From IMG/VR virus record IMGVR_UViG_3300025809_000062, positions 1 through 34,526 of that record: a stretch of 34,526 bases of DNA; one strand, given 5' to 3'. The notes below the pieces were generated by a model that was not told where the DNA came from, made no database searches, and was given only the letters and a program-made list of their open reading frames with translations. This stretch comes from a virus. This document shows positions 21,842-32,178 of this stretch, in pieces (within the stretch, counting starts at the first letter, position 1; every line of letters starts with the position of its first letter). Made by a program: the position numbers and the translations under genes.

Positions 21842-23516
21842 TGTGTGCTACCTCTTCAGTTCTACAAGCAATCTGCAGTTCGTCATGTACCCATGCCAAA
21901 ATGAGTGCATCGTTCTGTAGTCCTTGTCTTGTAATCTCCTGGTCAACCAAGGCTAACCACTTCTTACACAGAAGGGCTCCTGCTGACTGGAGTAGTTGTG
22001 AAAGGCATTTATGCTCTGACCTTACGAACAGCTTTCTGCCGTCCAAACCTTTGAGGTATCCGCGCTTATATGCTTGATTAAGTTCGTTCTTTAATGATTT
22101 AAAACTAGGAATATTCTTGTCAAACTCTGACTTAAGTCTCTTGCCGTCTTTTGCAGACCCACCGACTAGCTTGCCGATAAGAGTGTCCCCACCCCCATAA
22201 GTCGTGGCATAGATGAAAGTCTTAGCTGCATCCCTGGTAGGCAAACCTGCTGCCTTCTGGTTAAAAGTATGAATGTCTCCTTCCATGATTTGCTTGGCAT
22301 ACTCACCGCCATCATCAAGAAAATAGGCGAGGCACCGTAGTTCCAATTGAGACAAGTCACCACCACAGAGGTGCCATCCTTTGGGCACAGTGAACAGCTC
22401 TCGCATGGGTTTACCATAGGCTGCCCTAGCAGACACAGTCTGGGCCACGTTAGGGTTACGATGGCTTGCTCTACCTGACACAGTGCCACCAGAAACAATG
22501 GTATGTCTTAGCTTGCCGTCAGTGTCCACCATCTTGAGCCAGGCTTGACGACCTTCAGCTAACTGAGCGATTCTCTTTTGTACTAACATGAACTTCGCTA
22601 GTTTCTTAGATTCAGGATATGGCAACTGAGACAAGACAGTCTCGTCTACCTTAGCCTCACCACTGGGGGTGAATGACTTAGGTTTCCAACCGTACTTTTT
22701 AACTAAGCAATAGTGAATGTGCTTACGACTGTTAGGGTTAAACTCAACGACCTTGACCTTCGTAAACGGCTCTCCTTTGACGTATCCACGAGTCTTGTTG
22801 TTAGCTTTAGGTATGAACTCTGTGTGTATCTCCCAAGGCTCAAACAGCTCATTTAGGTCCTTCTCAAGCTCTATCCTGGTGGTGGCTAAATCAGCGTATA
22901 AACTCTCTGCTGCTTTAACATCAAACGTCCACCCATTGTTGCCAACTCTGTAGCAAATCTCAGCTAACTCATGTTCTAACTCAAGTGACTGCTCAGAGAA
23001 ACCTTTAGCCATCTGCATCAGCTTCTTGTACAGCTTGTAGGTGACAACTACGTCTTGCTTACAATACTCAAGCATCTCAGGGTTACAGGTCTCCCACCCT
23101 CCATCGTAGTCGCCTTTCATTGTGCCCATTCGTAGGCCCCAGGCTTTCAATGCGTGACTGCCCCACATACGTTTCTTGAAGTCATCAGGGAGTCCAACGG
23201 AGGTTGCATCGTCATTCATTAAGTCAGCAGCGACCAGACGACTAATTACAAGTGTGTCTGTGACTTTGCCAGTTGGTTTCCAGTGGGGATAAACCTTTTG
23301 TATTGCAGGTATGTCAAAACCAATGACGTTGTGACCTATGATTTCATCAGCTGCAGCAAGTAGGTCCAGGGCTTCTTTGATTCCTGTGTCACCATGATAG
23401 ATAGATAAGGCATTGACTCTTCTGTCCTCACAGGCTGTATCGAGTATCGATATACAGTGGATTGTGTCTAATTCCTTGAGCAGACCGTTACTCTCAAGGT
23501 CAAACACCAGGCTCAT
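21723..23516 (-). CDS. Family A DNA polymerase, T7-like
   Basis: The 597-residue enzyme opens with the 3'-5' exonuclease motif LVFDLESNG (Asp6, Glu8). Further exonuclease motifs lie in IIGHNVIGFDIPA and YCKQDVVVTYKLY. The polymerase part holds GGDLSQLELRCLAYF (motif A, Asp387), then AAKTFIYATTYGGG (motif B, Lys432 and Tyr440), and AWVHDELQIA (motif C, Asp545). It is shorter than T7 gp5 (704 residues). A T7-type thioredoxin-binding insert is not evident in its thumb region, so processivity may be achieved differently. The start overlaps the HTH gene by four bases. Together with primase-helicase, SSB and exonuclease it forms the replication fork set. Confidence 0.92.
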   Translation of the reverse strand: MSLVFDLESNGLLKELDTIHCISILDTACEDRRVNALSIYHGDTGIKEALDLLAAADEIIGHNVIGFDIPAIQKVYPHWKPTGKVTDTLVISRLVAADLMNDDATSVGLPDDFKKRMWGSHALKAWGLRMGTMKGDYDGGWETCNPEMLEYCKQDVVVTYKLYKKLMQMAKGFSEQSLELEHELAEICYRVGNNGWTFDVKAAESLYADLATTRIELEKDLNELFEPWEIHTEFIPKANNKTRGYVKGEPFTKVKVVEFNPNSRKHIHYCLVKKYGWKPKSFTPSGEAKVDETVLSQLPYPESKKLAKFMLVQKRIAQLAEGRQAWLKMVDTDGKLRHTIVSGGTVSGRASHRNPNVAQTVSARAAYGKPMRELFTVPKGWHLCGGDLSQLELRCLAYFLDDGGEYAKQIMEGDIHTFNQKAAGLPTRDAAKTFIYATTYGGGDTLIGKLVGGSAKDGKRLKSEFDKNIPSFKSLKNELNQAYKRGYLKGLDGRKLFVRSEHKCLSQLLQSAGALLCKKWLALVDQEITRQGLQNDALILAWVHDELQIACRTEEVAHNVGDILRGMAEEAGTYFGITTKLPIEADYAVGRTWCDTH

Positions 23517-23767
23517 ACCTGCATCTCTATCTGCTGCACATAATCTAAGTTAGGTTCTTGCCCATGCAACCACCACTTCCCTATCGTCTTCTTTTTACCT
23601 TTGCGGTCAACGACAGCAACATCTGAACGTACTATGTTGTGACCGTCAGCCTTTAGTTTGTGGATAATTGATGAGATACGAGTGATGCCCATGTGACGAA
23701 TGGCATCCAGAGAGGTAATTGAGTGTCCTTCTTGAAGGTATAAAAGTAAATCGTGCTTCTGTGACAT
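23513..23767 (-). CDS. Small winged helix/HTH protein
   Basis: The product has 84 residues. The segment ITSLDAIRHMGITRISSIIH followed by KLKADGHNIV is a clear helix-turn-helix with a wing, as in small phage DNA-binding proteins. The end reads KKTIGKWWLHGQEPNLDY. It sits between primase-helicase and polymerase, overlapping the latter's ATG by four bases; GGAGACATACA precedes its own start. It could regulate transcription or assist the fork. It is not a convincing lysogeny repressor, since it lies inside the replication operon without a divergent promoter. Confidence 0.55.
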   Translation of the reverse strand: MSQKHDLLLYLQEGHSITSLDAIRHMGITRISSIIHKLKADGHNIVRSDVAVVDRKGKKKTIGKWWLHGQEPNLDYVQQIEMQV

Positions 23768-23794: not shown

Positions 23795-25408
23795 TTAAAA
23801 GCGAGAGTTATCAGAATCGGCATCGATAAGCCTTCCTGATTCGCGGTTGTACTTAAGTCGTCCTGCCCAACCTACTTGACCAGTAAAACGGTTCTTGAGG
23901 ACCACCAAATCACGGCAATCATTGGTGGGGTCTTCAGCGTCCATTTGTAGACCAAGGCATTGGTCTGCTAGTTGGGCTATGGCGTGACTTCCTCTTAGCT
24001 GAGACAGCTCCACCTTGCCTCCTGCCTCATGCCCTTTACCTTGGGGACGAGTAAGGTGACTAACTAAAAACAAAGTAATGTCTAGCTCCTGAACCATCGT
24101 TCTTAAGCGAGTCATTGCGTCATCTATTAGTCTTCTCTCGTCTGTGACCTTTCCAGTCATCGAACTGACAACTATTGATAAATGGTCTAAAAACACATGG
24201 GTACAACCCATTGCTTTCGCCATGTATTGAATGCGATTGATGACAATGTCTAAACTGATGCTACCCTTGGAATCAAATAGCTGAATCTCTTGTGTTTCAA
24301 ACAGCTCGTCATGAGCTTCTAAGACCTCTTCTTTTGACGCAGCCTCATAGTCCTGGACAATGTTTTTATCGATGTGAAGGCCAATTAGACCCCTTACAGT
24401 GCGCTTGTTTTGCTCCTCTAACATGAGCATCCCAACCTTCTGGTCATGCCTATGCAAGTGGTAGGCAATCTCAGTGACTAAAGTAGATTTACCTACGCCA
24501 CTCCCGGCACATATTGTGACTAGAGTAGACGGACGGATACCTCTTGTAAGCTCATTGAGCTTTGGGTAGGGATAAGTAATCGTGGAATGTTCATCAGCAT
24601 CAGTGATACTGCTGCGGAGTTCTGTTGTGGAAACAATACCATCAGGTCTCCAGTCCTTCGCCCTCCATATGGCATTGACTATTTCAGCCTCACCTCCTGC
24701 CTGTAGAGCCTCGTTAGGGTCTTTGTAACCACTGAGCTTGGCTATCTTACATTTGCCAACAGGAAGGCTCTCAGCACACTCTAAGGCAGCCTTTTGCCCT
24801 GCCTCATCTGAGTCGAACATCAAGATGATTTCTTCAAAGCCACCTAGGAAGTCCCAGGCTTTCATCAGGGCTTTCTTAGCTGATTGCGCTCCATTTGGGA
24901 CAGACACTACAGGCCACTTGTTGTGTTGAGCCTGGGACACTGAGAGAGCATCTATGGCCCCTTCTGTAACCACAAGTTTTTTACCTGTAGTCCACAAATG
25001 CTGACCAAAGAGGCACATGTGTATTGAATCGCCTAGGACAGTAAAGTTCTTGTCTTTGTCTCTTGTCTTTTGGACTCTGATTTCACCATTGTCATCACGG
25101 TAGTTTTCAATCTGTACTGGTCTTCCTTGGTACTCTCCGACTTGATAGTCATACTTGCGGCATGTGTCTTCACGGATGCTTCTGGCAACCAAGTCAGCGT
25201 ATTCTCCTTGTATTAAATCTTTGTGTAGTTTCTTTGGTTTTGTGGCTGCGACAACTTCTACGTCATCACCTGGCGTAAACAATTGACACCCAAAACAATA
25301 GGTATGGCCATCGTCATAGATAGCAGCGTTATCCTTTGAGCCACAACTCTCGCAACTCACATGCATTACAAATGCAGACTCATTGTGAGTCTCTTGGATT
25401 GATAACAT
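23795..25408 (-). CDS. DNA primase-helicase, T7 gp4-like
   Basis: The product has 537 residues and three parts. Residues about 17-42 form a zinc ribbon (CESCGSKDNAAIYDDG, then YCFGCQ). The TOPRIM primase domain carries VVTEGAIDALSVSQ (Glu149), and further on LMFDSDEAGQKAALECA. The RecA-like helicase has Walker A TICAGSGVGKSTLVTE (Lys307) and downstream TLFLVSHLTRPQGKG. T7 gp4 has 566 residues and the same order. GAGGG lies eight bases before ATG 25408. An in-frame ATG 14 codons later lacks such a site, so a short form is not indicated. The first bases overlap the methyltransferase end. Confidence 0.9.
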   Translation of the reverse strand: MLSIQETHNESAFVMHVSCESCGSKDNAAIYDDGHTYCFGCQLFTPGDDVEVVAATKPKKLHKDLIQGEYADLVARSIREDTCRKYDYQVGEYQGRPVQIENYRDDNGEIRVQKTRDKDKNFTVLGDSIHMCLFGQHLWTTGKKLVVTEGAIDALSVSQAQHNKWPVVSVPNGAQSAKKALMKAWDFLGGFEEIILMFDSDEAGQKAALECAESLPVGKCKIAKLSGYKDPNEALQAGGEAEIVNAIWRAKDWRPDGIVSTTELRSSITDADEHSTITYPYPKLNELTRGIRPSTLVTICAGSGVGKSTLVTEIAYHLHRHDQKVGMLMLEEQNKRTVRGLIGLHIDKNIVQDYEAASKEEVLEAHDELFETQEIQLFDSKGSISLDIVINRIQYMAKAMGCTHVFLDHLSIVVSSMTGKVTDERRLIDDAMTRLRTMVQELDITLFLVSHLTRPQGKGHEAGGKVELSQLRGSHAIAQLADQCLGLQMDAEDPTNDCRDLVVLKNRFTGQVGWAGRLKYNRESGRLIDADSDNSRF

Positions 25409-26456
25409 TTGATTTCCCTCGATTTACTAAAGTCAGCCAAGCTTTTGCAGCTGTCTGCGGTACTACTCCGTTCCCCAAGAGCCTAATGCGGTCCACCCTG
25501 TCGGGACACCCATCAACCACTCGACCCAATTGGGGTTCAGGTGGCCAGGCACTATGTCGGTCCCAACTCCCCCTATCGCGGCATTTGGTAGCGAGTCGAA
25601 CCTCCTGCTCTTGCCATCCGCTCTTACTAGACTGGCCTCTTTGTATCCGCCCTTCCAATCCCTTGTTGTAGGAGTTGGCAGTGATTCCTGACTGAACACT
25701 ATTGCAGTCAAATTGTTCTGATGGTTCTTCCTTATCTTTTTTGTGGCTTTGTTGGCATCTTGTGTTGTTGGTGTCGGCCAAGATGTTGGCTCCTGATAAA
25801 TCGCTACCGCAGTTGGGTTGACTTGCTCTCTGAGATTTGCTGGCTTCGTTCTGCCCTTGCGTTGTGTTGTTGCTTGTCGAACTAGCGCCTCCTCTGATCT
25901 CTGAGGTAGATGATCCATAGTGTTCGGAGTTGCCCAAGATGTAGACTCTTTTTCTTTGGTGTGGTGCGCCAACTTCACGCGCTGAGAATATTCCCCACGT
26001 TGCTCCGTAACAGTCTTCTTCCAAGTTGCTGATGACTTCTCTAAGTCCAAGGCTGATGTGTCCTTCGACATTTTCAAAGAAGCATTGAATAGGTCTAATT
26101 GATTGGATGTGTTTTCTGATGTAAGGCCATAGGTGTCTTGGGTCTTCTGTCCCTTTGCGCTGTCCTGCTGCGCTAAAAGGTTGGCAGGGATAGCCTCCAG
26201 TGATAAGGCTAACTTTGTCTCGAAAGATTTCTGATGGGAAGGTTTTAAGATCCGTGTAAATAGGTGCGGCAGGTAACTGCCCTGTTTCCATCTTCGCAAC
26301 CAAGTTTGCAATGGCGAATGCTTCGATTTCAACGTAAGCGATGACTCGATGTTCAAACCCGGCAAGGTCAAGTCCTCTTTCGATGCCACCATATCCTGAG
26401 CAAAATGAAATGACAGTTGGTAATTCTTTGGTAATATCCACATTTGTTTTCCTCAT
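25380..26456 (-). CDS. DNA cytosine-5 methyltransferase
   Basis: All main C5 motifs are present: I (VISFCSGYGGIERGLDLAG), IV with the catalytic Cys91 (TGGYPCQPFSAAGQRKG), VI (FFENVEGH, Glu128), VIII (GAPHQRKRVYILGN) and the C-terminal X-type segment (RIRLLGNGVVPQTAAKAW). The region between VIII and IX is low in complexity (Asn, Ser, Thr, Gln). No cognate restriction enzyme is visible, so it probably protects phage DNA or alters its recognition. ATG 26456 lacks a ribosome site. The GTG at 26441 has AGGA nine bases upstream and gives a slightly shorter enzyme. An apparent ATG at 26480 lies in a terminator loop. A second long frame covers most of the gene. Confidence 0.85.
   Translation of the reverse strand: MRKTNVDITKELPTVISFCSGYGGIERGLDLAGFEHRVIAYVEIEAFAIANLVAKMETGQLPAAPIYTDLKTFPSEIFRDKVSLITGGYPCQPFSAAGQRKGTEDPRHLWPYIRKHIQSIRPIQCFFENVEGHISLGLREVISNLEEDCYGATWGIFSAREVGAPHQRKRVYILGNSEHYGSSTSEIRGGASSTSNNTTQGQNEASKSQRASQPNCGSDLSGANILADTNNTRCQQSHKKDKEEPSEQFDCNSVQSGITANSYNKGLEGRIQRGQSSKSGWQEQEVRLATKCRDRGSWDRHSAWPPEPQLGRVVDGCPDRVDRIRLLGNGVVPQTAAKAWLTLVNRGKSNVINPRDSQ
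25463..26443 (-). CDS. Overprinted frame within the methyltransferase gene, WPTP-repeat protein
   Basis: This 326-codon frame lies wholly inside the methyltransferase gene on the same strand. Its ATG is preceded by AGGA eight bases upstream. The product shows a Ser/Lys-rich N-terminal half with KDTSALDLEKSSATWKK and EQRGEYSQRVKLAHH, then three similar blocks (SWATP at 169-173, SWPTP at 221-225, SLPTP at 254-258). It ends with LNPNWVEWLMGVPTGWT at 302-318. Proteins with exactly these features are common in phage annotations beside or over C5 methylases. Whether it is expressed is not known; the motifs may also follow from selection on the other frame. Treat as possible dual coding. Confidence 0.45.
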   Translation of the reverse strand: MWILPKNYQLSFHFAQDMVASKEDLTLPGLNIESSLTLKSKHSPLQTWLRRWKQGSYLPHLFTRILKPSHQKSFETKLALSLEAIPANLLAQQDSAKGQKTQDTYGLTSENTSNQLDLFNASLKMSKDTSALDLEKSSATWKKTVTEQRGEYSQRVKLAHHTKEKESTSWATPNTMDHLPQRSEEALVRQATTQRKGRTKPANLREQVNPTAVAIYQEPTSWPTPTTQDANKATKKIRKNHQNNLTAIVFSQESLPTPTTRDWKGGYKEASLVRADGKSRRFDSLPNAAIGGVGTDIVPGHLNPNWVEWLMGVPTGWTALGSWGTE

Positions 26457-26460
26457 AAAC

Positions 26461-26497
26461 AAAAAAAGGGCCACCCCCATTTCTGAGGATGACCCTT
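26461..26497 (-). terminator. Rho-independent terminator after endonuclease I
   Basis: On the minus strand the arms AAGGGTCATCC and GGGTGGCCCTT form an 11-pair stem (G-U pairs allowed) with a ten-base loop, followed by seven T. It lies 13 bases after the endonuclease stop and just before the methyltransferase start. Host polymerase should stop here, while phage polymerase may read through. Confidence 0.75.
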
Positions 26498-27586: not shown

Positions 27587-30265
27587 CTAACTGAAGCAGT
27601 ACTCTGATTCTATTACTTTGTTTAAATCAAGATTACCTTTGGGTGGGACTTGTATGTCTAACTTTTCGATGCCTTCATGCGACAACTGTCTCTTGGCCTG
27701 CTTCCAAAACTCAGAGTAAAGACAATAGTCTGAGTACATCTCAGCAAACGTATGACGAACTGATTCATACATGACCTCACTTTCAGCAGGTGTAGTGCCA
27801 AAGGCATCGTGTATCAAAAAGAAATTAGTCACGCCTTGTCTCTTTGCATCTAAGACAGTCTTTAGCAAGTGAGAAGAATCCATTGAGTGGATGACGTTAG
27901 GTGCTACAGAACTCTTAGACTTCTTCTTGTCAACTTTAGACTTAGCACTCTTGGTCCTATAGGTTGCTTGCGTCCGTTTGTTGATTCCTGCCTCTCTGTC
28001 AAACAAGAAGATTTTCACTTTCTTAACATCCCAGTGAGTATACCGCTGACACATTGGAAACCCTATCGGAGTATCAAAGCGTAAATGTTTACCTTCGTGA
28101 GCTAAGGCTCCTGAAATCTTCTGAAAGAAAGACATGCCACCTGCAGCACTACTAATGACCTGCTTAACTGATGCATAGTTAATGGTAGCTAAGAACCTCG
28201 CAGCTTGCGTTTGTAACCATAGTTCATCACCAAATGGATGAACAAATGGTTTACCAGTAGCTGCATCAAGTTCTTTCTTGATGACTTTATCAGACAGCTT
28301 CTTCATGATGTCGTCAATCAACTGGTCACCAAAGCCCCAGGCATCACTAGAGTAACCATAGGTCATTGTGTTTCTTTTGACTGTGCTACGGTCAACACCA
28401 TAGTCTAACCATAGTTTTGCAAGAGTTATCCTGGAGGCTCTTACTTGAGCAACTGTCTTCAGTAGATTTCCTGTCTTTTTGTCTTTGATTTCTCTTAGGT
28501 TTGGTTCCTCAGTGGTTGGGTCAGCTATTTCCTTTAGACGTGCATTAGTCACTGCAGCTACTGCAGCATAAACATCTTGAGGTGTGTCGCTAGGCAATAA
28601 GTTAACCAGGGCACCATCGTCTTCATTGAGTGATGCTGCAGCATAGTGCTGTACGCCACTGTTGGTTCCATCTAAAGAACACGGTAGTCCACACATGTAC
28701 TCCTCTCCTGCCACACGACAGTCCATGTAGTTTGCATACTCATGACATGCAGCTAGGAACTGAAACGGTTTGTCAGCTTTAGACCAAATCTTGAAGGTAC
28801 CAACAAAGTCACGACCAATGGCATACACAAGACGTTCTCTTCGTTGAACAAACGACACTCTAGTATCCAGAGATTTCTTACTGAGCTTGTTGATGTCCCA
28901 GACGTTAGCTACATGCATGGCTAACCAGTACAAAGAGTCATCGTTAGTGACTATTGTCTTATCATGTAGCAAGAACAATGACTTGATGTGGTCATCTCTG
29001 TGGTAACTAAAGTTAGACACTGGATACACTCTGCCTCTAAAGTCTAGGTTCCACCCTAAGTAAAACTTTGTGTACATAGACATTTCATCAGCATCTGCTA
29101 GGTCTTGAGTCATCAAAGACACAGCACCGTCAATCTCACGGTTCTTAGTGTCTATCTCTTTGTCTATTGCAGTGAAGACCTTCTTGTCATCAACAGACAT
29201 AGAACTAAAGTCATCAGGTTTCTTTTGTTTAGCAACCTTCGTTTTAGACGGAAACTTACTAATTGATACATCGTTATCCCAAGCCCACTTAATGGCTTCT
29301 AATGTGTACTGATTGATTTCTAGAGGTGTCTCTTGTAATGCATTGAGGGCCTCTACGTAACCAGGTAATGACTTACCGTCCTTGAGTTGGTAATCAACGG
29401 CTTTCCTTTGTACATATGAACTCTTGCGGACCAATGGTACTTGCTTACAGGCTCTTTCCGTAAAGTAACAACCAGTGTCAAACTTAGTCCATGGTTGCGG
29501 TGGTACGACTAAAGGTCTAAACATGGGTTCTTGCCATGATGCAAGATAATCCATGTCAGCTATTTGGTCTCTAGCCTCTATAGTTAGACCAATCATCTTC
29601 CTAAAGTCAGAATACTTAGGTCCTTCTCTCTTGTCCCAACCTTCAAAGACACCACTTGCCTTCAAGACAGCACTAAGTATCAAGGTTCCTACCTTTATGT
29701 GTCTTTCGCATAGGTCTTTGTCTTGACCATTGACCTTGAGTTTTATGTCTTTAGGACCCCAGTCTTGTTGGCTGTAGTTCTTCTTAGAGGCAATTGCTTT
29801 AGCAGCTTTCACCTTGAAGAAATCTACAGACTCATCCTTAGTCACTCTAGTCTCTATAGACTTCGCTAGTTTACTGTCGAACTCTGTCAGACCGTCTGCC
29901 CATTGCTGTAGTTCAACCTTGTTTCCTATCATGTTCAATATGTTAGTCCTACAGCCATTAGTTGCTACAGCTTCGTAACATACAGCTAGACCAATGTAAG
30001 CAGCGACATCTGTGTCTATAGACTTAAGGTCTTTGTAACCACAGTGCTTTCTACCGTCTCCTTTGTTCTCCTGAGACGTTAGATACTCTTGTATGGCTTC
30101 AGATACTTTTGGTAGGGCTTGAGTTATTAACTTGTGAGGATTGTTCTGGGTGGATAACTTAGAGTTCCCTTCTAGTCTACTAAGGTATCTCTGTCTACCA
30201 TCGTCAAACATCTTGTCTTCACGCTGCATTTGTATTTCATATGTACCACTGATTAGCTCCTTCAT
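27587..30265 (-). CDS. T7-like single-subunit RNA polymerase
   Basis: The catalytic set of T7 RNA polymerase is present: motif A LPCSLDGTNSGVQHYAA (Asp532), motif B STVKRNTMTYGYSSDAWGFG (Lys630, Tyr638) and motif C FFLIHDAFGTTP (Asp820), with VAPNVIHSMDSSHLLKT just before. The region ahead of motif C (THWDVKKVKIFLFDREAGIN) corresponds to the promoter-specificity loop. The start is taken at 30265 (MKELISGTYEIQ) because GGGAG lies upstream; an earlier GTG at 30310 falls inside promoter 3. That gives 892 residues, against 883 in T7. It should transcribe the five GTGTCCACC promoters. The gene has its own copy directly upstream. Confidence 0.93.
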   Translation of the reverse strand: MKELISGTYEIQMQREDKMFDDGRQRYLSRLEGNSKLSTQNNPHKLITQALPKVSEAIQEYLTSQENKGDGRKHCGYKDLKSIDTDVAAYIGLAVCYEAVATNGCRTNILNMIGNKVELQQWADGLTEFDSKLAKSIETRVTKDESVDFFKVKAAKAIASKKNYSQQDWGPKDIKLKVNGQDKDLCERHIKVGTLILSAVLKASGVFEGWDKREGPKYSDFRKMIGLTIEARDQIADMDYLASWQEPMFRPLVVPPQPWTKFDTGCYFTERACKQVPLVRKSSYVQRKAVDYQLKDGKSLPGYVEALNALQETPLEINQYTLEAIKWAWDNDVSISKFPSKTKVAKQKKPDDFSSMSVDDKKVFTAIDKEIDTKNREIDGAVSLMTQDLADADEMSMYTKFYLGWNLDFRGRVYPVSNFSYHRDDHIKSLFLLHDKTIVTNDDSLYWLAMHVANVWDINKLSKKSLDTRVSFVQRRERLVYAIGRDFVGTFKIWSKADKPFQFLAACHEYANYMDCRVAGEEYMCGLPCSLDGTNSGVQHYAAASLNEDDGALVNLLPSDTPQDVYAAVAAVTNARLKEIADPTTEEPNLREIKDKKTGNLLKTVAQVRASRITLAKLWLDYGVDRSTVKRNTMTYGYSSDAWGFGDQLIDDIMKKLSDKVIKKELDAATGKPFVHPFGDELWLQTQAARFLATINYASVKQVISSAAGGMSFFQKISGALAHEGKHLRFDTPIGFPMCQRYTHWDVKKVKIFLFDREAGINKRTQATYRTKSAKSKVDKKKSKSSVAPNVIHSMDSSHLLKTVLDAKRQGVTNFFLIHDAFGTTPAESEVMYESVRHTFAEMYSDYCLYSEFWKQAKRQLSHEGIEKLDIQVPPKGNLDLNKVIESEYCFS

Positions 30266-30293: not shown

Positions 30294-30314
30294 TCTCTAA
30301 AGGTGGACACAACT
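30294..30314 (-). promoter_or_regulatory. Phage-RNAP promoter 3, ahead of its own polymerase
   Basis: The minus strand reads AGTTGTGTCCACC followed by TTTAGAGA, one base shorter between the two blocks than sites 1, 2 and 5. It ends about 28 bases before the polymerase ATG. This would give positive feedback on the polymerase gene. Confidence 0.6.
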
Positions 30315-30376: not shown

Positions 30377-30406
30377 AAAAAAAAAGCCTCCGTAGTGAAG
30401 GCTTTT
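30377..30406 (-). terminator. Rho-independent terminator between integrase operon and RNA polymerase
   Basis: AAAAGCCT (30382-30389) and AGGCTTTT (30399-30406) form an exact eight-pair stem with a nine-base loop; on the minus strand it runs into nine T. It lies 16 bases after the 45-residue gene. A short T-run on the plus strand could make it work both ways. Confidence 0.75.
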
Positions 30407-30421
30407 GTTTCTAATGCTTCA

Positions 30422-30559
30422 TTAGTGAAGCGTAATGTTTTCAAGTACTAACTCATACTGATGTGGCTTATCATCGTCTACCTCTAATACATCAGTAGCT
30501 AATGACCACGCTAAGTCCCAAGTATCTTTGGCTTCTTTAGCTTTATCTTCTTTGTTCAT
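30422..30559 (-). CDS. 45-residue acidic protein after integrase
   Basis: The short product reads MNKEDKAKEAKDTWDLAWSL, then ATDVLEVDDDKPHQYELVLE and NITLH. GGGAG lies six bases before the ATG, which overlaps the integrase stop by the ATGA pattern, and a terminator follows the stop. Both features support a genuine coupled gene. It looks helical and acidic, without an HTH. As the partner gene of the integrase it could be a directionality factor, but those are usually basic, so this is only a possibility. Confidence 0.5.
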   Translation of the reverse strand: MNKEDKAKEAKDTWDLAWSLATDVLEVDDDKPHQYELVLENITLH

Positions 30560-31410
30560 GCGACTCTCCCTTTAGGTGCTTCAAGTTTACTCATGATATT
30601 AGCCAAAGAATCTTTCTTGGCATGGACATACTTCTTTGTAGTAGCTATCGACCTGTGACCTAAGATAGTACCGACCACAATAGTGTCTACATTAAACTCC
30701 ATCGCTAACCTGGTGGCACATGTGTGTCTAAGCACATGAAACACAAAGTCATTGTCAAAAGGAGCTATAGACATCCTCGCAGCATCCCAAGTGTCATAGA
30801 ACTTTCTGTGCGAATAGACACCACTAGGACAGTACTCTAGGTTCTCTAAGGCAACCTTAGCTTCTTGGTTCAACGGTACAGTACGCTGCTCACCGTTCTT
30901 TGTCTGCGTAAGCTCAACAAAGCCGCCACAGTGACTTATAGTACCGACAGTCTTCTTACTGGTCACGTTGTTGATACTTAGGATTTCACCTAAGCGCATA
31001 CCAGTGTTCACACCCAGGCTAACAAAGTCAGCCATCCAGGGATGGTCTGAGTCCATGAAGAACTCTATGAGGTCGTTGACCTCTTGGTCAGAGAAGAACC
31101 TAGGTCTCCCTGGCTCTACAGGTTTCCATCGTACCTTGGGTACTCTGTCGACCAACTCAAAGTCAGCTGCTAGGTTAAACAGTGCACTGAATGCTGCCAG
31201 GTACCTGTTGACTGTGTTGTTCTTTAGACCTTGAGCAGACAAGTGGTCTATGAAAGCATAGAGGTCAGCAGCTTTATATTCGCCAATCTCTTTGTACTTG
31301 TTGTTTCTAAAGTCGCTGAGTCTTCTTACCATGAACCCACAGTCATGCAGGTACTTACCGCTCCAGAGTCTAGCTCCGTGTGCATCAAAAAAAGTTTCTA
31401 TAGTTGTCAT
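30556..31410 (-). CDS. Tyrosine-recombinase integrase
   Basis: The 284-residue protein has an N-terminal SAM-like core-binding domain (AADLYAFIDHLSAQGLKNNT, then VNRYLAAFSALFNLAADFEL). The catalytic domain shows NTGMRLGEIL (Arg139), a Lys-bearing beta turn (LTQTKNGEQRTVPL), HVLRHTCATRL (His225, Arg228) and GHRSIATTKKYVH (Tyr261). It lacks a long arm-binding N-terminal domain of lambda type, although its first 30 residues could contact DNA. The adjacent tRNA-half attP confirms its role: inserting the phage at a host tRNA-Met gene. A terminator and the attP lie between it and the upstream promoters. Confidence 0.9.
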   Translation of the reverse strand: MTTIETFFDAHGARLWSGKYLHDCGFMVRRLSDFRNNKYKEIGEYKAADLYAFIDHLSAQGLKNNTVNRYLAAFSALFNLAADFELVDRVPKVRWKPVEPGRPRFFSDQEVNDLIEFFMDSDHPWMADFVSLGVNTGMRLGEILSINNVTSKKTVGTISHCGGFVELTQTKNGEQRTVPLNQEAKVALENLEYCPSGVYSHRKFYDTWDAARMSIAPFDNDFVFHVLRHTCATRLAMEFNVDTIVVGTILGHRSIATTKKYVHAKKDSLANIMSKLEAPKGRVA

Positions 31411-31457
31411 CGTTGTATCCTCTTAGTTGTGACAGCATCAAGGCTGTCTGAAGACAT

Positions 31458-31480
31458 AAAAAAAGCACCCGGAGGCGCTT
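31458..31480 (-). terminator. Rho-independent terminator upstream of integrase
   Basis: On the minus strand AAGCGCC pairs with GGTGCTT (one G-U) around a four-base loop and runs into seven T. It lies about 50 bases before the integrase ATG and after attP, so transcripts from the upstream promoters must pass it to reach the integrase. Confidence 0.6.
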
Positions 31481-31511
31481 GTCGTTATCAATCGATTAAT
31501 TTAGGTTAAAT

Positions 31512-31530
31512 CTATTGCTATTCGTATGTA
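31512..31530. repeat. Left copy of 19-base direct repeat flanking attP
   Basis: CTATTGCTATTCGTATGTA matches the right copy at 31790-31808 at 16 of 19 positions, with the mismatches confined to the centre. Two conserved blocks, CTATTGC and CGTATGTA, flank the tRNA-derived core at 29 and 174 bases. They are candidate arm-type sites for the integrase. Confidence 0.5.
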
Positions 31531-31558
31531 GGAGACTATAGAACTGCTAGTTACGTTA

Positions 31559-31616
31559 GTAGAGCAGTCGACTCATAATCGATTGGTCGTAGGTTCAAGT
31601 CCTACTGGGCCCACCA
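31559..31616 (+). other. attP: attP core: 3' half of a tRNA-Met (CAT) gene
   Basis: The plus strand contains the anticodon stem-loop (GTCGA-CTCATAA-TCGAT, anticodon 31574-31576), a T-arm (GTAGG-TTCAAGT-CCTAC), the 3' acceptor strand TGGGCCC, a discriminator A and the encoded CCA at 31614-31616. The 5' acceptor strand and a proper D-arm are missing, so it is not a working tRNA gene. This is the usual attP of integrases that insert in tRNA genes: the phage copy restores the 3' half. The CTCATAA loop marks elongator tRNA-Met. It lies 150 bases upstream of the integrase gene. Confidence 0.85.
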
Positions 31617-31781
31617 TTTTACAAGACGTTTTAGCTATAGTTTCTACGTTAGAAAAGGCAATAGACCTTTGTAACGTATTACCCTCTTTGTCGATCCCCA
31701 ATTTGGAATGGGGGCATAAAGTAGCGTTTGTCTGGACTGCTGTAGGGAGCCACCCTATGGTCTACCTGCAACCACATTGAC

Positions 31782-31810
31782 AATATAGACTATTGCAAAA
31801 CGTATGTAAA
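31782..31810 (-). promoter_or_regulatory. Sigma70-like early promoter
   Basis: On the minus strand TTTACA (31805-31810) and TATATT (31782-31787) are separated by exactly 17 bases; each matches the consensus at five of six positions. It points through attP toward integrase and RNA polymerase, which a host polymerase must transcribe first. The right 19-base repeat fills the spacer, so integrase bound there could block the promoter. Confidence 0.55.
31790..31808. repeat. Right copy of 19-base direct repeat flanking attP
   Basis: CTATTGCAAAACGTATGTA repeats the left copy at 31512-31530 in the same orientation. It overlaps the spacer and part of the -35 element of the sigma70-like promoter, suggesting that a protein bound at this arm also controls early transcription. 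Confidence 0.5.
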
Positions 31811-31815
31811 GACCA

Positions 31816-31836
31816 TCAGTATAGGTGGACACAACT
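31816..31836 (-). promoter_or_regulatory. Phage-RNAP promoter 4, divergent initiation region
   Basis: AGTTGTGTCCACC is followed on the minus strand by TATACTGA rather than the TATTAGAGA type. The recognition half is intact, while the melting and start part differs, so the site may be weaker. It points to attP, integrase and RNA polymerase. Confidence 0.5.
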
Positions 31837-31963: not shown

Positions 31964-32146
31964 TTACATAAGTGTAAAACAAGGACACTCATGGTCTTTA
32001 CCAGAGTTTTCAGTCTCCCAGTAGTTACCACAGCGTCCACACTTTTTGTACTCAGGTTTCTTTTGGTTGCCAAAGATGGCATCGTAGTTTGATTCGTATT
32101 GTTCCCGGTTCGGGATAGGTCTTGGAGCTGAACCTTTGCCAGACAT
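31964..32146 (-). CDS. Small zinc-ribbon protein
   Basis: From ATG 32146 the product has 60 residues: MSGKGSAPRPIPNREQYESN, then YDAIFGNQKKPEYKKCGRCG, ending KDHECPCFTLM. GGAGGT lies five bases upstream; an in-frame ATG four codons earlier has no ribosome site. The CGRCG pair and the terminal HECPC could hold one zinc ion. Short phage proteins starting MSGKGS-x-x-RP and continuing to 'DAIFG' are widespread but without known function. It follows phage promoter 5 and precedes a strong terminator, forming its own unit. Confidence 0.6.
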   Translation of the reverse strand: MSGKGSAPRPIPNREQYESNYDAIFGNQKKPEYKKCGRCGNYWETENSGKDHECPCFTLM

Positions 32147-32178
32147 AGGCACCTCCATTGTTTATGATAAGAGATTGT

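What the first reader, a model, noticed from the sequence alone, without database searches (positions are those of the whole stretch)
31410..31836. attP sits between the early promoters and integrase/RNA polymerase: a possible repressor-free lysogeny switch
The sigma70-like promoter (31782-31810) and phage promoter 4 (31816-31836) both point through the tRNA-half attP (31559-31616) toward integrase and RNA polymerase. Recombination at attP would place integrase and RNA polymerase at the opposite prophage end from these promoters. Both genes would then be silent in the lysogen without any repressor, and no CI-like gene is visible. The terminator at 31458-31480 would also stop host read-through into integrase. 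Integration-dependent control is known in other phages through attP inside a repressor gene; here it would act by cutting the early operon from its promoter.
Basis: partly seen in the sequence, partly recalled or inferred. Interest (0 to 1): 0.85.

Follow-up and report, generated by a model that had tools for sequence, protein, structure and literature searches.

The report
Phage early operon split by attP
In a marine T7-like phage and its relatives, the site where the phage would splice itself into the host chromosome lies between the start signals (plus a newly recognised structured RNA leader) and the genes for integrase and phage RNA polymerase, so integration would by itself disconnect the genes that trigger the lytic cycle; a known mobile element, Tn916, is controlled this way, but nobody has shown it for a T7-like phage.

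Summary
The geometry is real. On the minus strand a phage promoter (31836), a sigma70-like promoter (31810-31782), a 56-bp tRNA-Ile(CAU) attP core (31561-31616), integrase and a T7-like RNA polymerase follow in that order, and the order is conserved in about eight related lineages. Additions: (1) a conserved, covarying ~77-nt leader (31758-31682), absent from Rfam, sits between promoter and attP; (2) intrinsic terminators lie between attP and integrase and before RNA polymerase, facing the phage's own early transcript as well as host read-through; (3) two arm-type repeats flank attP, one across the sigma70 promoter; (4) RNA polymerase keeps its own phage promoter; (5) a winged-HTH gene is present, so 'repressor-free' is unproven. 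In four Pseudomonadales T7-like prophages, integration also separates RNA polymerase from the upstream integrase (with MarR in three), but there attP lies between int and RNAP; here both are cut off. The nearest known architecture is Tn916 (promoter + antiterminator RNA | att | insulating terminator). No prophage of this group turned up in some 250 genomes of the two likely host families, so lysogeny is undemonstrated; silencing int also leaves excision unexplained. Verdict: geometry confirmed, the switch plausible but unproven, antitermination inferred.

The parts
31820..31836 (-). phage-type promoter AGTTGTGTCCACCTATA
   Evidence: conserved at this place in the related contigs
31782..31810 (-). 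sigma70-like early promoter TTTACA-17-TATATT
31790..31808 (.). arm-type repeat (promoter side) overlapping the sigma70 promoter
   Evidence: 19 nt, 84% to 31512-31530; the motif TACAT[AG]CG..CAATAG occurs exactly twice in the window
31682..31758 (-). conserved leader, candidate structured RNA of about 77 nt
   Evidence: no Rfam match
31561..31616 (+). attP core: 56-nt exact 3' part of host tRNA-Ile(CAU)
31512..31530 (.). arm-type repeat (integrase side)
31463..31480 (-). intrinsic terminator between attP and int, facing int
   Evidence: stem changes on both sides in relatives (GCGCC/GGTGC, AGACC/GGTCT)
31431..31448 (-). inverted repeat GACAGC-CTTGAT-GCTGTC before the int ribosome-binding site
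   Evidence: kept in L004, L101, L120 and L124, with paired stem changes
30556..31410 (-). tyrosine integrase, 284 aa
   Evidence: PF00589, 5.8e-20
30422..30559 (-). small ORF, 45 aa, overlapping the end of int
   Evidence: function unknown
30382..30406 (-). intrinsic terminator between int and RNAP
30298..30314 (-). phage-type promoter directly before RNAP
27587..30265 (-). T7-like single-subunit RNA polymerase, 892 aa from ATG
   Evidence: PF00940, 1.6e-79
23513..23767 (-). winged-HTH protein, 84 aa: repressor candidate, not a proven repressor
   Evidence: PF14090, 1.3e-9; relatives in the group

Best explanation
The attachment site splits the phage's early operon into a 'key' half and a 'lock' half. 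Key: phage promoter, sigma70 promoter and a structured leader RNA. Lock: one or more intrinsic terminators, then int, another terminator, a phage promoter and RNAP. In the incoming circular (or concatemeric) phage the host RNA polymerase starts at the sigma70 promoter, makes the leader RNA, reads through attP and, most likely because the leader makes it terminator-resistant (as HK022 put RNA or Tn916 canT do), passes the terminators and transcribes int and RNAP; RNAP then amplifies itself from 30314 and runs the lytic cycle. Recombination of attP with the tRNA-Ile gene moves the key to one end of the prophage, pointing outwards across the tRNA, and leaves the lock promoterless and terminator-insulated at the other end, so RNAP is not made. 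Shown: the order of the parts, its conservation, covariation in the leader, terminators between attP and int, and the separation of RNAP from upstream int in distant real prophages. Inferred: that this phage forms prophages, that the leader antiterminates, and that uncoupling rather than a repressor keeps the prophage silent.
For: Order and conservation in about eight lineages. Leader: a covariance model from five close sequences finds single copies in L099, L102-L107, L111, L112, L124, L125, L130 and others at E 3e-6 to 2e-4, each just after the promoter region and upstream of a tRNA-Ile-like core; 14 distinct rows, 5 pairs changed on both sides, covariation score 0.201 against 0.098 in shuffles (0/500), near zero when the partner is slid. 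Terminators between attP and int in nearly all lineages: two in L101, L103, L106 and L111, four in the early operon of L124. L131, which has no leader, has no terminator there either. Two arm-type repeats, exactly two copies per genome in the close group, flank attP and change in parallel (ATACG to ATGCG) in L120/L121/L161 (such a repeat in 3/400 shuffles). Real prophages G377, G290, G440 and G551: RNAP 0.3-1 kb inside one junction, int (with MarR in three) at the other end. Tn916 precedent for the same order of parts: promoter + canT | att | T1 (PMC11658703).
Against: No prophage of this group in 48 genomes carrying the exact attB, or in 112 + 140 genomes of two host families (the same RNAP profile does find the phages). 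Silencing int leaves excision unexplained; no excisionase was identified. Leader folds are not more stable than shuffles (z about 0), and the alignment used for pair counts was fitted to the structure. L004, a close relative, has unrelated sequence in place of the leader yet keeps terminators; L101 matches the model only at E 1.4. L103 has no terminator call between int and RNAP. Sigma70 matches are weak outside the close group. RNAP keeps a phage promoter in the lock half. No sequence similarity to HK022 put was found.
Confidence: 0.4

Rival explanations
1. Transient integration without lysogeny. Int and attP let the phage integrate now and then during lytic infection, as in T7-like cyanophages; the position of attP has no regulatory role, and the terminators merely tune int and RNAP expression.
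For: S-TIP37 and P-SSP7 integrate at low frequency, form no stable lysogens and have no identified repressor (PMC8776855). No prophage of this group in likely host genomes. Int off in the prophage would make stable, reversible lysogeny hard.
Against: Does not explain why attP is kept upstream of RNAP in every lineage, nor the conserved terminators and leader. Metagenome-assembled host genomes often lose prophages, so the absence is weak.
Confidence: 0.27
2. Ordinary repressor control. A phage repressor (the winged-HTH protein at 23513-23767 or another small protein) or a host factor keeps the phage promoters off, and the attP position is incidental.
For: A conserved winged-HTH protein; MarR regulators next to int in LUZ100, HTVC019P and three of the four prophages examined; MarR-based control is the published model for LUZ100 (PMC10134795).
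Against: No MarR next to int here. The winged-HTH gene lies in the replication operon, which phage RNAP should transcribe, not next to a clear host promoter; no operator was identified.
Confidence: 0.18
3. Integrase autoregulation. Integrase bound to its promoter-side arm site covers the sigma70 promoter and shuts it down, so Int limits its own and RNAP expression before integration.
For: The arm-type repeat 31790-31808 lies inside the promoter 31782-31810; exactly two copies flank attP in the close group, changing in parallel. Int-regulated int genes are known (KplE1 intS, PMC2951348; title and abstract only seen).
Against: The promoter-side copy is found only in the close group, not in L101, L103, L111 or L124. 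Integrase binding is not shown. It is compatible with the main model, so it may be an extra layer.
Confidence: 0.1

Closest known systems
Tn916 integrative and conjugative element (Porf7, canT antiterminator RNA, terminator T1; PMC11658703)
   Same: Promoter and downstream RNA element at one end, att junction, then an insulating terminator before the element's genes; the operon is joined only in the circular form.
   Different: A Gram-positive conjugative element; antitermination is shown there and only inferred here; [quoted passage not shown] no sequence relation was tested.
LUZ100 and related temperate T7-like phages and prophages (PMC10134795; G377, G290, G440, G551)
   Same: Tyrosine int upstream of a T7-like RNAP, terminator between them, phage promoter directly before RNAP; integration separates RNAP from the upstream int region.
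   Different: In the prophages att lies between int and RNAP, and sequence suggests the same for LUZ100 and HTVC019P; a MarR regulator stands next to int in most; the tRNA-Leu upstream of int in G440 looks like a replacement tRNA, not attP.
HK022 put RNA (PMC9378689)
   Same: A ~70-nt, two-stem RNA just downstream of an early promoter, in a phage of a gammaproteobacterium.
   Different: No similarity found with model R1 in the HK022 genome; antitermination not tested here; single copy per genome here, two in HK022.
T7-like cyanophages S-TIP37 and P-SSP7 (PMC8776855)
   Same: int, tRNA-derived attP, no recognised repressor.
   Different: attP is downstream of int there; integration occurs without stable lysogeny.
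Integration-dependent immunity
   Same: Integration itself changes gene expression.
   Different: There recombination changes the repressor; here it would separate promoter from operon.

Membership tests
Temperate T7-like (Autographiviridae-type) phage | single-subunit T7-like RNA polymerase | tested here: met
   PF00940 1.6e-79; about 28-30% identity to T7-like RNAPs
Temperate T7-like (Autographiviridae-type) phage | tyrosine integrase directly upstream of RNAP | tested here: met
   annotated order in LUZ100 and HTVC019P
Temperate T7-like (Autographiviridae-type) phage | T7-type head genes | tested here: not met
   The major capsid and adaptor proteins match SU10 families (PF17236, PF24175), so this is a mosaic, not filed as Autographiviridae
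Temperate T7-like (Autographiviridae-type) phage | MarR-like regulator next to int | tested here: not met
   No such ORF between promoter and int in the window
Temperate T7-like (Autographiviridae-type) phage | found as a prophage | tested here: inconclusive
   None of this group in the genomes searched
Tn916-type recombinational uncoupling | att site between main promoter and operon | tested here: met
Tn916-type recombinational uncoupling | insulating terminator between att and first gene | tested here: met
Tn916-type recombinational uncoupling | processive cis-acting antiterminator RNA after the promoter | not testable with these tools
   A conserved covarying leader is present; activity needs an experiment
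HK022 put antiterminator | homologous put sequence/structure | tested here: not met
   Model R1 has no match in HK022 at E up to 10
tRNA attP of a tyrosine integrase | exact tRNA 3'-end identity with flanking arm-type repeats | tested here: met

The most novel reading that the evidence does not exclude
A repressor-free lysogeny system in a T7-like phage: integration at attP separates a promoter plus a new class of antiterminator RNA (the key) from terminator-guarded integrase and RNA polymerase genes (the lock), so DNA topology alone holds the lysogenic state, as in Tn916.
Probability: 0.25. Interest if true: 0.85.

Novelty: new variant of a known kind. Interest (0 to 1): 0.6.

Why it matters
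How T7-like phages with integrases keep RNA polymerase silent, and whether they are truly temperate, is open: the LUZ100 authors propose MarR control but obtained no lysogens, and the cyanophage authors found integration without lysogeny. This arrangement gives a directly testable alternative, that the position of attP upstream of RNAP is itself the switch, and the four prophages examined suggest that separating RNAP from the upstream int region may hold more widely. It also adds a candidate RNA element that may be a new antiterminator, and extends the Tn916 termination/antitermination logic to a phage.

Tried and rejected
attP as a mere tRNA remnant: rejected because of the 56-nt exact identity and the two flanking arm repeats. 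Known RNA family for the leader: no Rfam match up to E 1. Leader homologous to HK022 put: no match. Leader stability as evidence: z about 0, not used. MFE consensus from a plain MAFFT alignment of all leaders: the 3' half was misaligned between clades, so a covariance model from the close group was used instead. Prophages by RNAP profile in exact-attB genomes and two families: none of this group; one hit, G074, is a siphovirus-like prophage with a divergent RNAP, int and RNAP next to tRNA-Arg/His, its far end not defined. Prophages by integrase profile: G047 and G132 hold integrases without the other phage genes tested in the fetched flanks. Exchange of the winged-HTH gene as an immunity cassette: rejected, its 98% identity to L101 lies in a 5.3-kb block of 87% identity. 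LUZ100 tRNA-Leu as attP: unlikely, see G440.

Full report
WHAT THE WINDOW IS. The window is a 34,526-base IMG/VR virus record, a marine podovirus-like mosaic: T7-like RNA polymerase, SSB, endonuclease I and primase/helicase, but SU10-type capsid and adaptor proteins. The main genes run on the minus strand. Its RNA polymerase is only about 28-30% identical to the listed T7-like relatives in GenBank phages, so it stands in a poorly sampled group; close and intermediate relatives come from IMG/VR.

THE OBSERVATION. Read on the minus strand, the order is: late terminators (31953-31924, 31870-31843), phage promoter (31836), sigma70-like promoter (31810-31782), attP core (31616-31561), terminator (31480-31463), integrase (31410-30556), a 45-aa ORF, terminator (30406-30382), phage promoter (30314), RNA polymerase (from 30265). 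The attP core is a 56-nt exact copy of the 3' part of tRNA-Ile(CAU), found in 92 stretches of genomes, mostly SAR92, Porticoccaceae, Halieaceae and Luminiphilus. The sigma70 match alone would not be significant (nine hits in the region against 10.7 expected), but it is the best of them, is unusual in its own segment (P 0.006) and is kept in the close relatives.

CONSERVATION. The same order occurs in L004-L006 (95% integrase identity), L120/L121/L161, L101, L103, L105/L106/L111/L112, L124/L125 and L131. Variation is informative. L105/L106/L111/L112 carry a complete tRNA-Ile gene and an additional phage promoter between it and int. L103 has the tRNA-like core in the opposite orientation. L124 has several early genes and four intrinsic terminators between attP and int. 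L130 keeps the leader followed by a different tRNA-Ile segment. L131 has the core directly after the promoter, no leader and no terminators.

A CONSERVED LEADER. Between promoter and attP lies a ~77-nt element (31758-31682). A covariance model built only from the five close sequences finds it at E 3e-6 to 2e-4 in the more distant contigs, one copy each, after the promoters and before the tRNA-like segment (contexts). Fourteen distinct sequences give 91% paired cells, five pairs with changes on both sides and a covariation score of 0.201 against 0.098 in shuffles (0/500); slid controls fall to at most 0.064. Caveats: the alignment was fitted to the structure, one of the fifteen pairs mostly fails, and minimum free energies are no better than shuffles. 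No Rfam family matches. In L004 the element is replaced by unrelated sequence although the flanks are nearly identical, which looks like the exchange of a module; L101 has a diverged copy (E 1.4).

TERMINATORS. An intrinsic terminator stands between attP and int in nearly all lineages, sometimes two, and another before RNAP in most (the automatic scan missed the shorter AAAGACC-TYCG-GGTCTTT hairpins of L004, L005 and L120, seen directly). They face transcription coming from the early promoters. Early expression of int and RNAP therefore needs read-through. The leader's position, directly after the early promoter and before a run of terminators, is that of HK022 put RNA (PMC9378689) and of Tn916 canT (PMC11658703). 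Antitermination is my inference; leader and terminators both being absent from L131 is weak support, and L004 (terminator, no leader) is weak evidence against. A rival is that the hairpins only tune expression.

ARM SITES. The motif TACAT[AG]CG..CAATAG occurs exactly twice in the window, at 31808-31790 and 31530-31512, on either side of attP; the close relatives also have two copies, and in L120/L121/L161 both copies carry the same A-to-G change. These look like integrase arm-type sites. One lies within the sigma70 promoter, so integrase may repress its own promoter.

PROPHAGES. No T7-like RNAP was found in 48 genomes with the exact attB or in 140 genomes of one host family; one of 112 in the other family has a divergent one in a siphovirus-like prophage. 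Across 392 Pseudomonadales genomes, seven carry one. Four were examined. G377 and G290 have perfect 203-bp and 179-bp repeats at the ends; G440 is in a tRNA-Leu gene; G551 has a 21-bp repeat. In all four RNAP lies 0.3-1 kb inside one junction while int lies at the other end, with a MarR match in G377, G440 and G551. So in these phages attP lies between int and RNAP and integration separates RNAP from the upstream region. LUZ100 and HTVC019P have tRNA anticodon-arm sequences between int and RNAP (read by eye), consistent with the same place. The common feature is that attP is upstream of RNAP; the special feature of the window's group is that it is also upstream of int. I found no paper in the held library stating this, but two key papers cited there (on Agrobacterium phage Pasto and on integrating pelagiphages) were not read, so priority is not established.

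REPRESSOR. A winged-HTH protein (23513-23767; PF14090, 1.3e-9) is conserved in the group. It lies in the replication operon and nothing shows that it is a repressor, but 'repressor-free' cannot be claimed. Not every ORF of the window was scanned with Pfam.

INTERPRETATION. The best-supported reading is a Tn916-like arrangement: promoter and leader on one side of attP, terminator-guarded int and RNAP on the other, joined only when the phage is circular or concatemeric. It predicts silence of RNAP after integration without a repressor. It does not explain excision, because int would be silent too, and RNAP keeps its own phage promoter, so a leak would be amplified. Transient integration without lysogeny, as in T7-like cyanophages (PMC8776855), is a serious rival. 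I give the main reading 0.4.

Noticed in passing
window 31431-31448: Inverted repeat GACAGC-CTTGAT-GCTGTC just before the int ribosome-binding site, kept with paired stem changes in L004, L101, L120 and L124; may be an RNA hairpin controlling int translation or an operator.
   Followed up: partly
L004 252-480 and 735-978: Two group I introns (RF00028, E about 1e-19) close together in a close relative of the window phage.
   Followed up: no
G440 phage tRNA-Leu upstream of int; LUZ100 (L113) 2658-2743: The G440 prophage disrupts a host tRNA-Leu and carries a full tRNA-Leu(TAG) upstream of int, so this tRNA looks like a replacement rather than attP; LUZ100's tRNA-Leu may be the same.
   Followed up: partly
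L034 3260 and 4436; L037 657 and 5205; L090/L094: Host genomes (SAR92, Luminiphilus) hold a second exact copy of the 56-nt tRNA-Ile core 1.2-10 kb from the intact gene, so this tRNA is used as an integration site by other, small elements.
   Followed up: no
L102 and L104, first bases: Two viral contigs begin 4-5 nt before the tRNA-Ile core, as expected if assembly breaks at sequence shared by phage attP and host tRNA.
   Followed up: no
window 31964-32158: Small CxxC protein conserved just upstream of the promoter region in most relatives; function unknown.
   Followed up: no
L101 3566, 5543, 8317: The phage promoter motif has changed to ACTTCTGTCGTCC in all three places, suggesting a shift in RNAP specificity.
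   Followed up: no
window 25380-26480: C-5 cytosine DNA methylase (PF00145, 6.5e-34) in the replication module.
   Followed up: no
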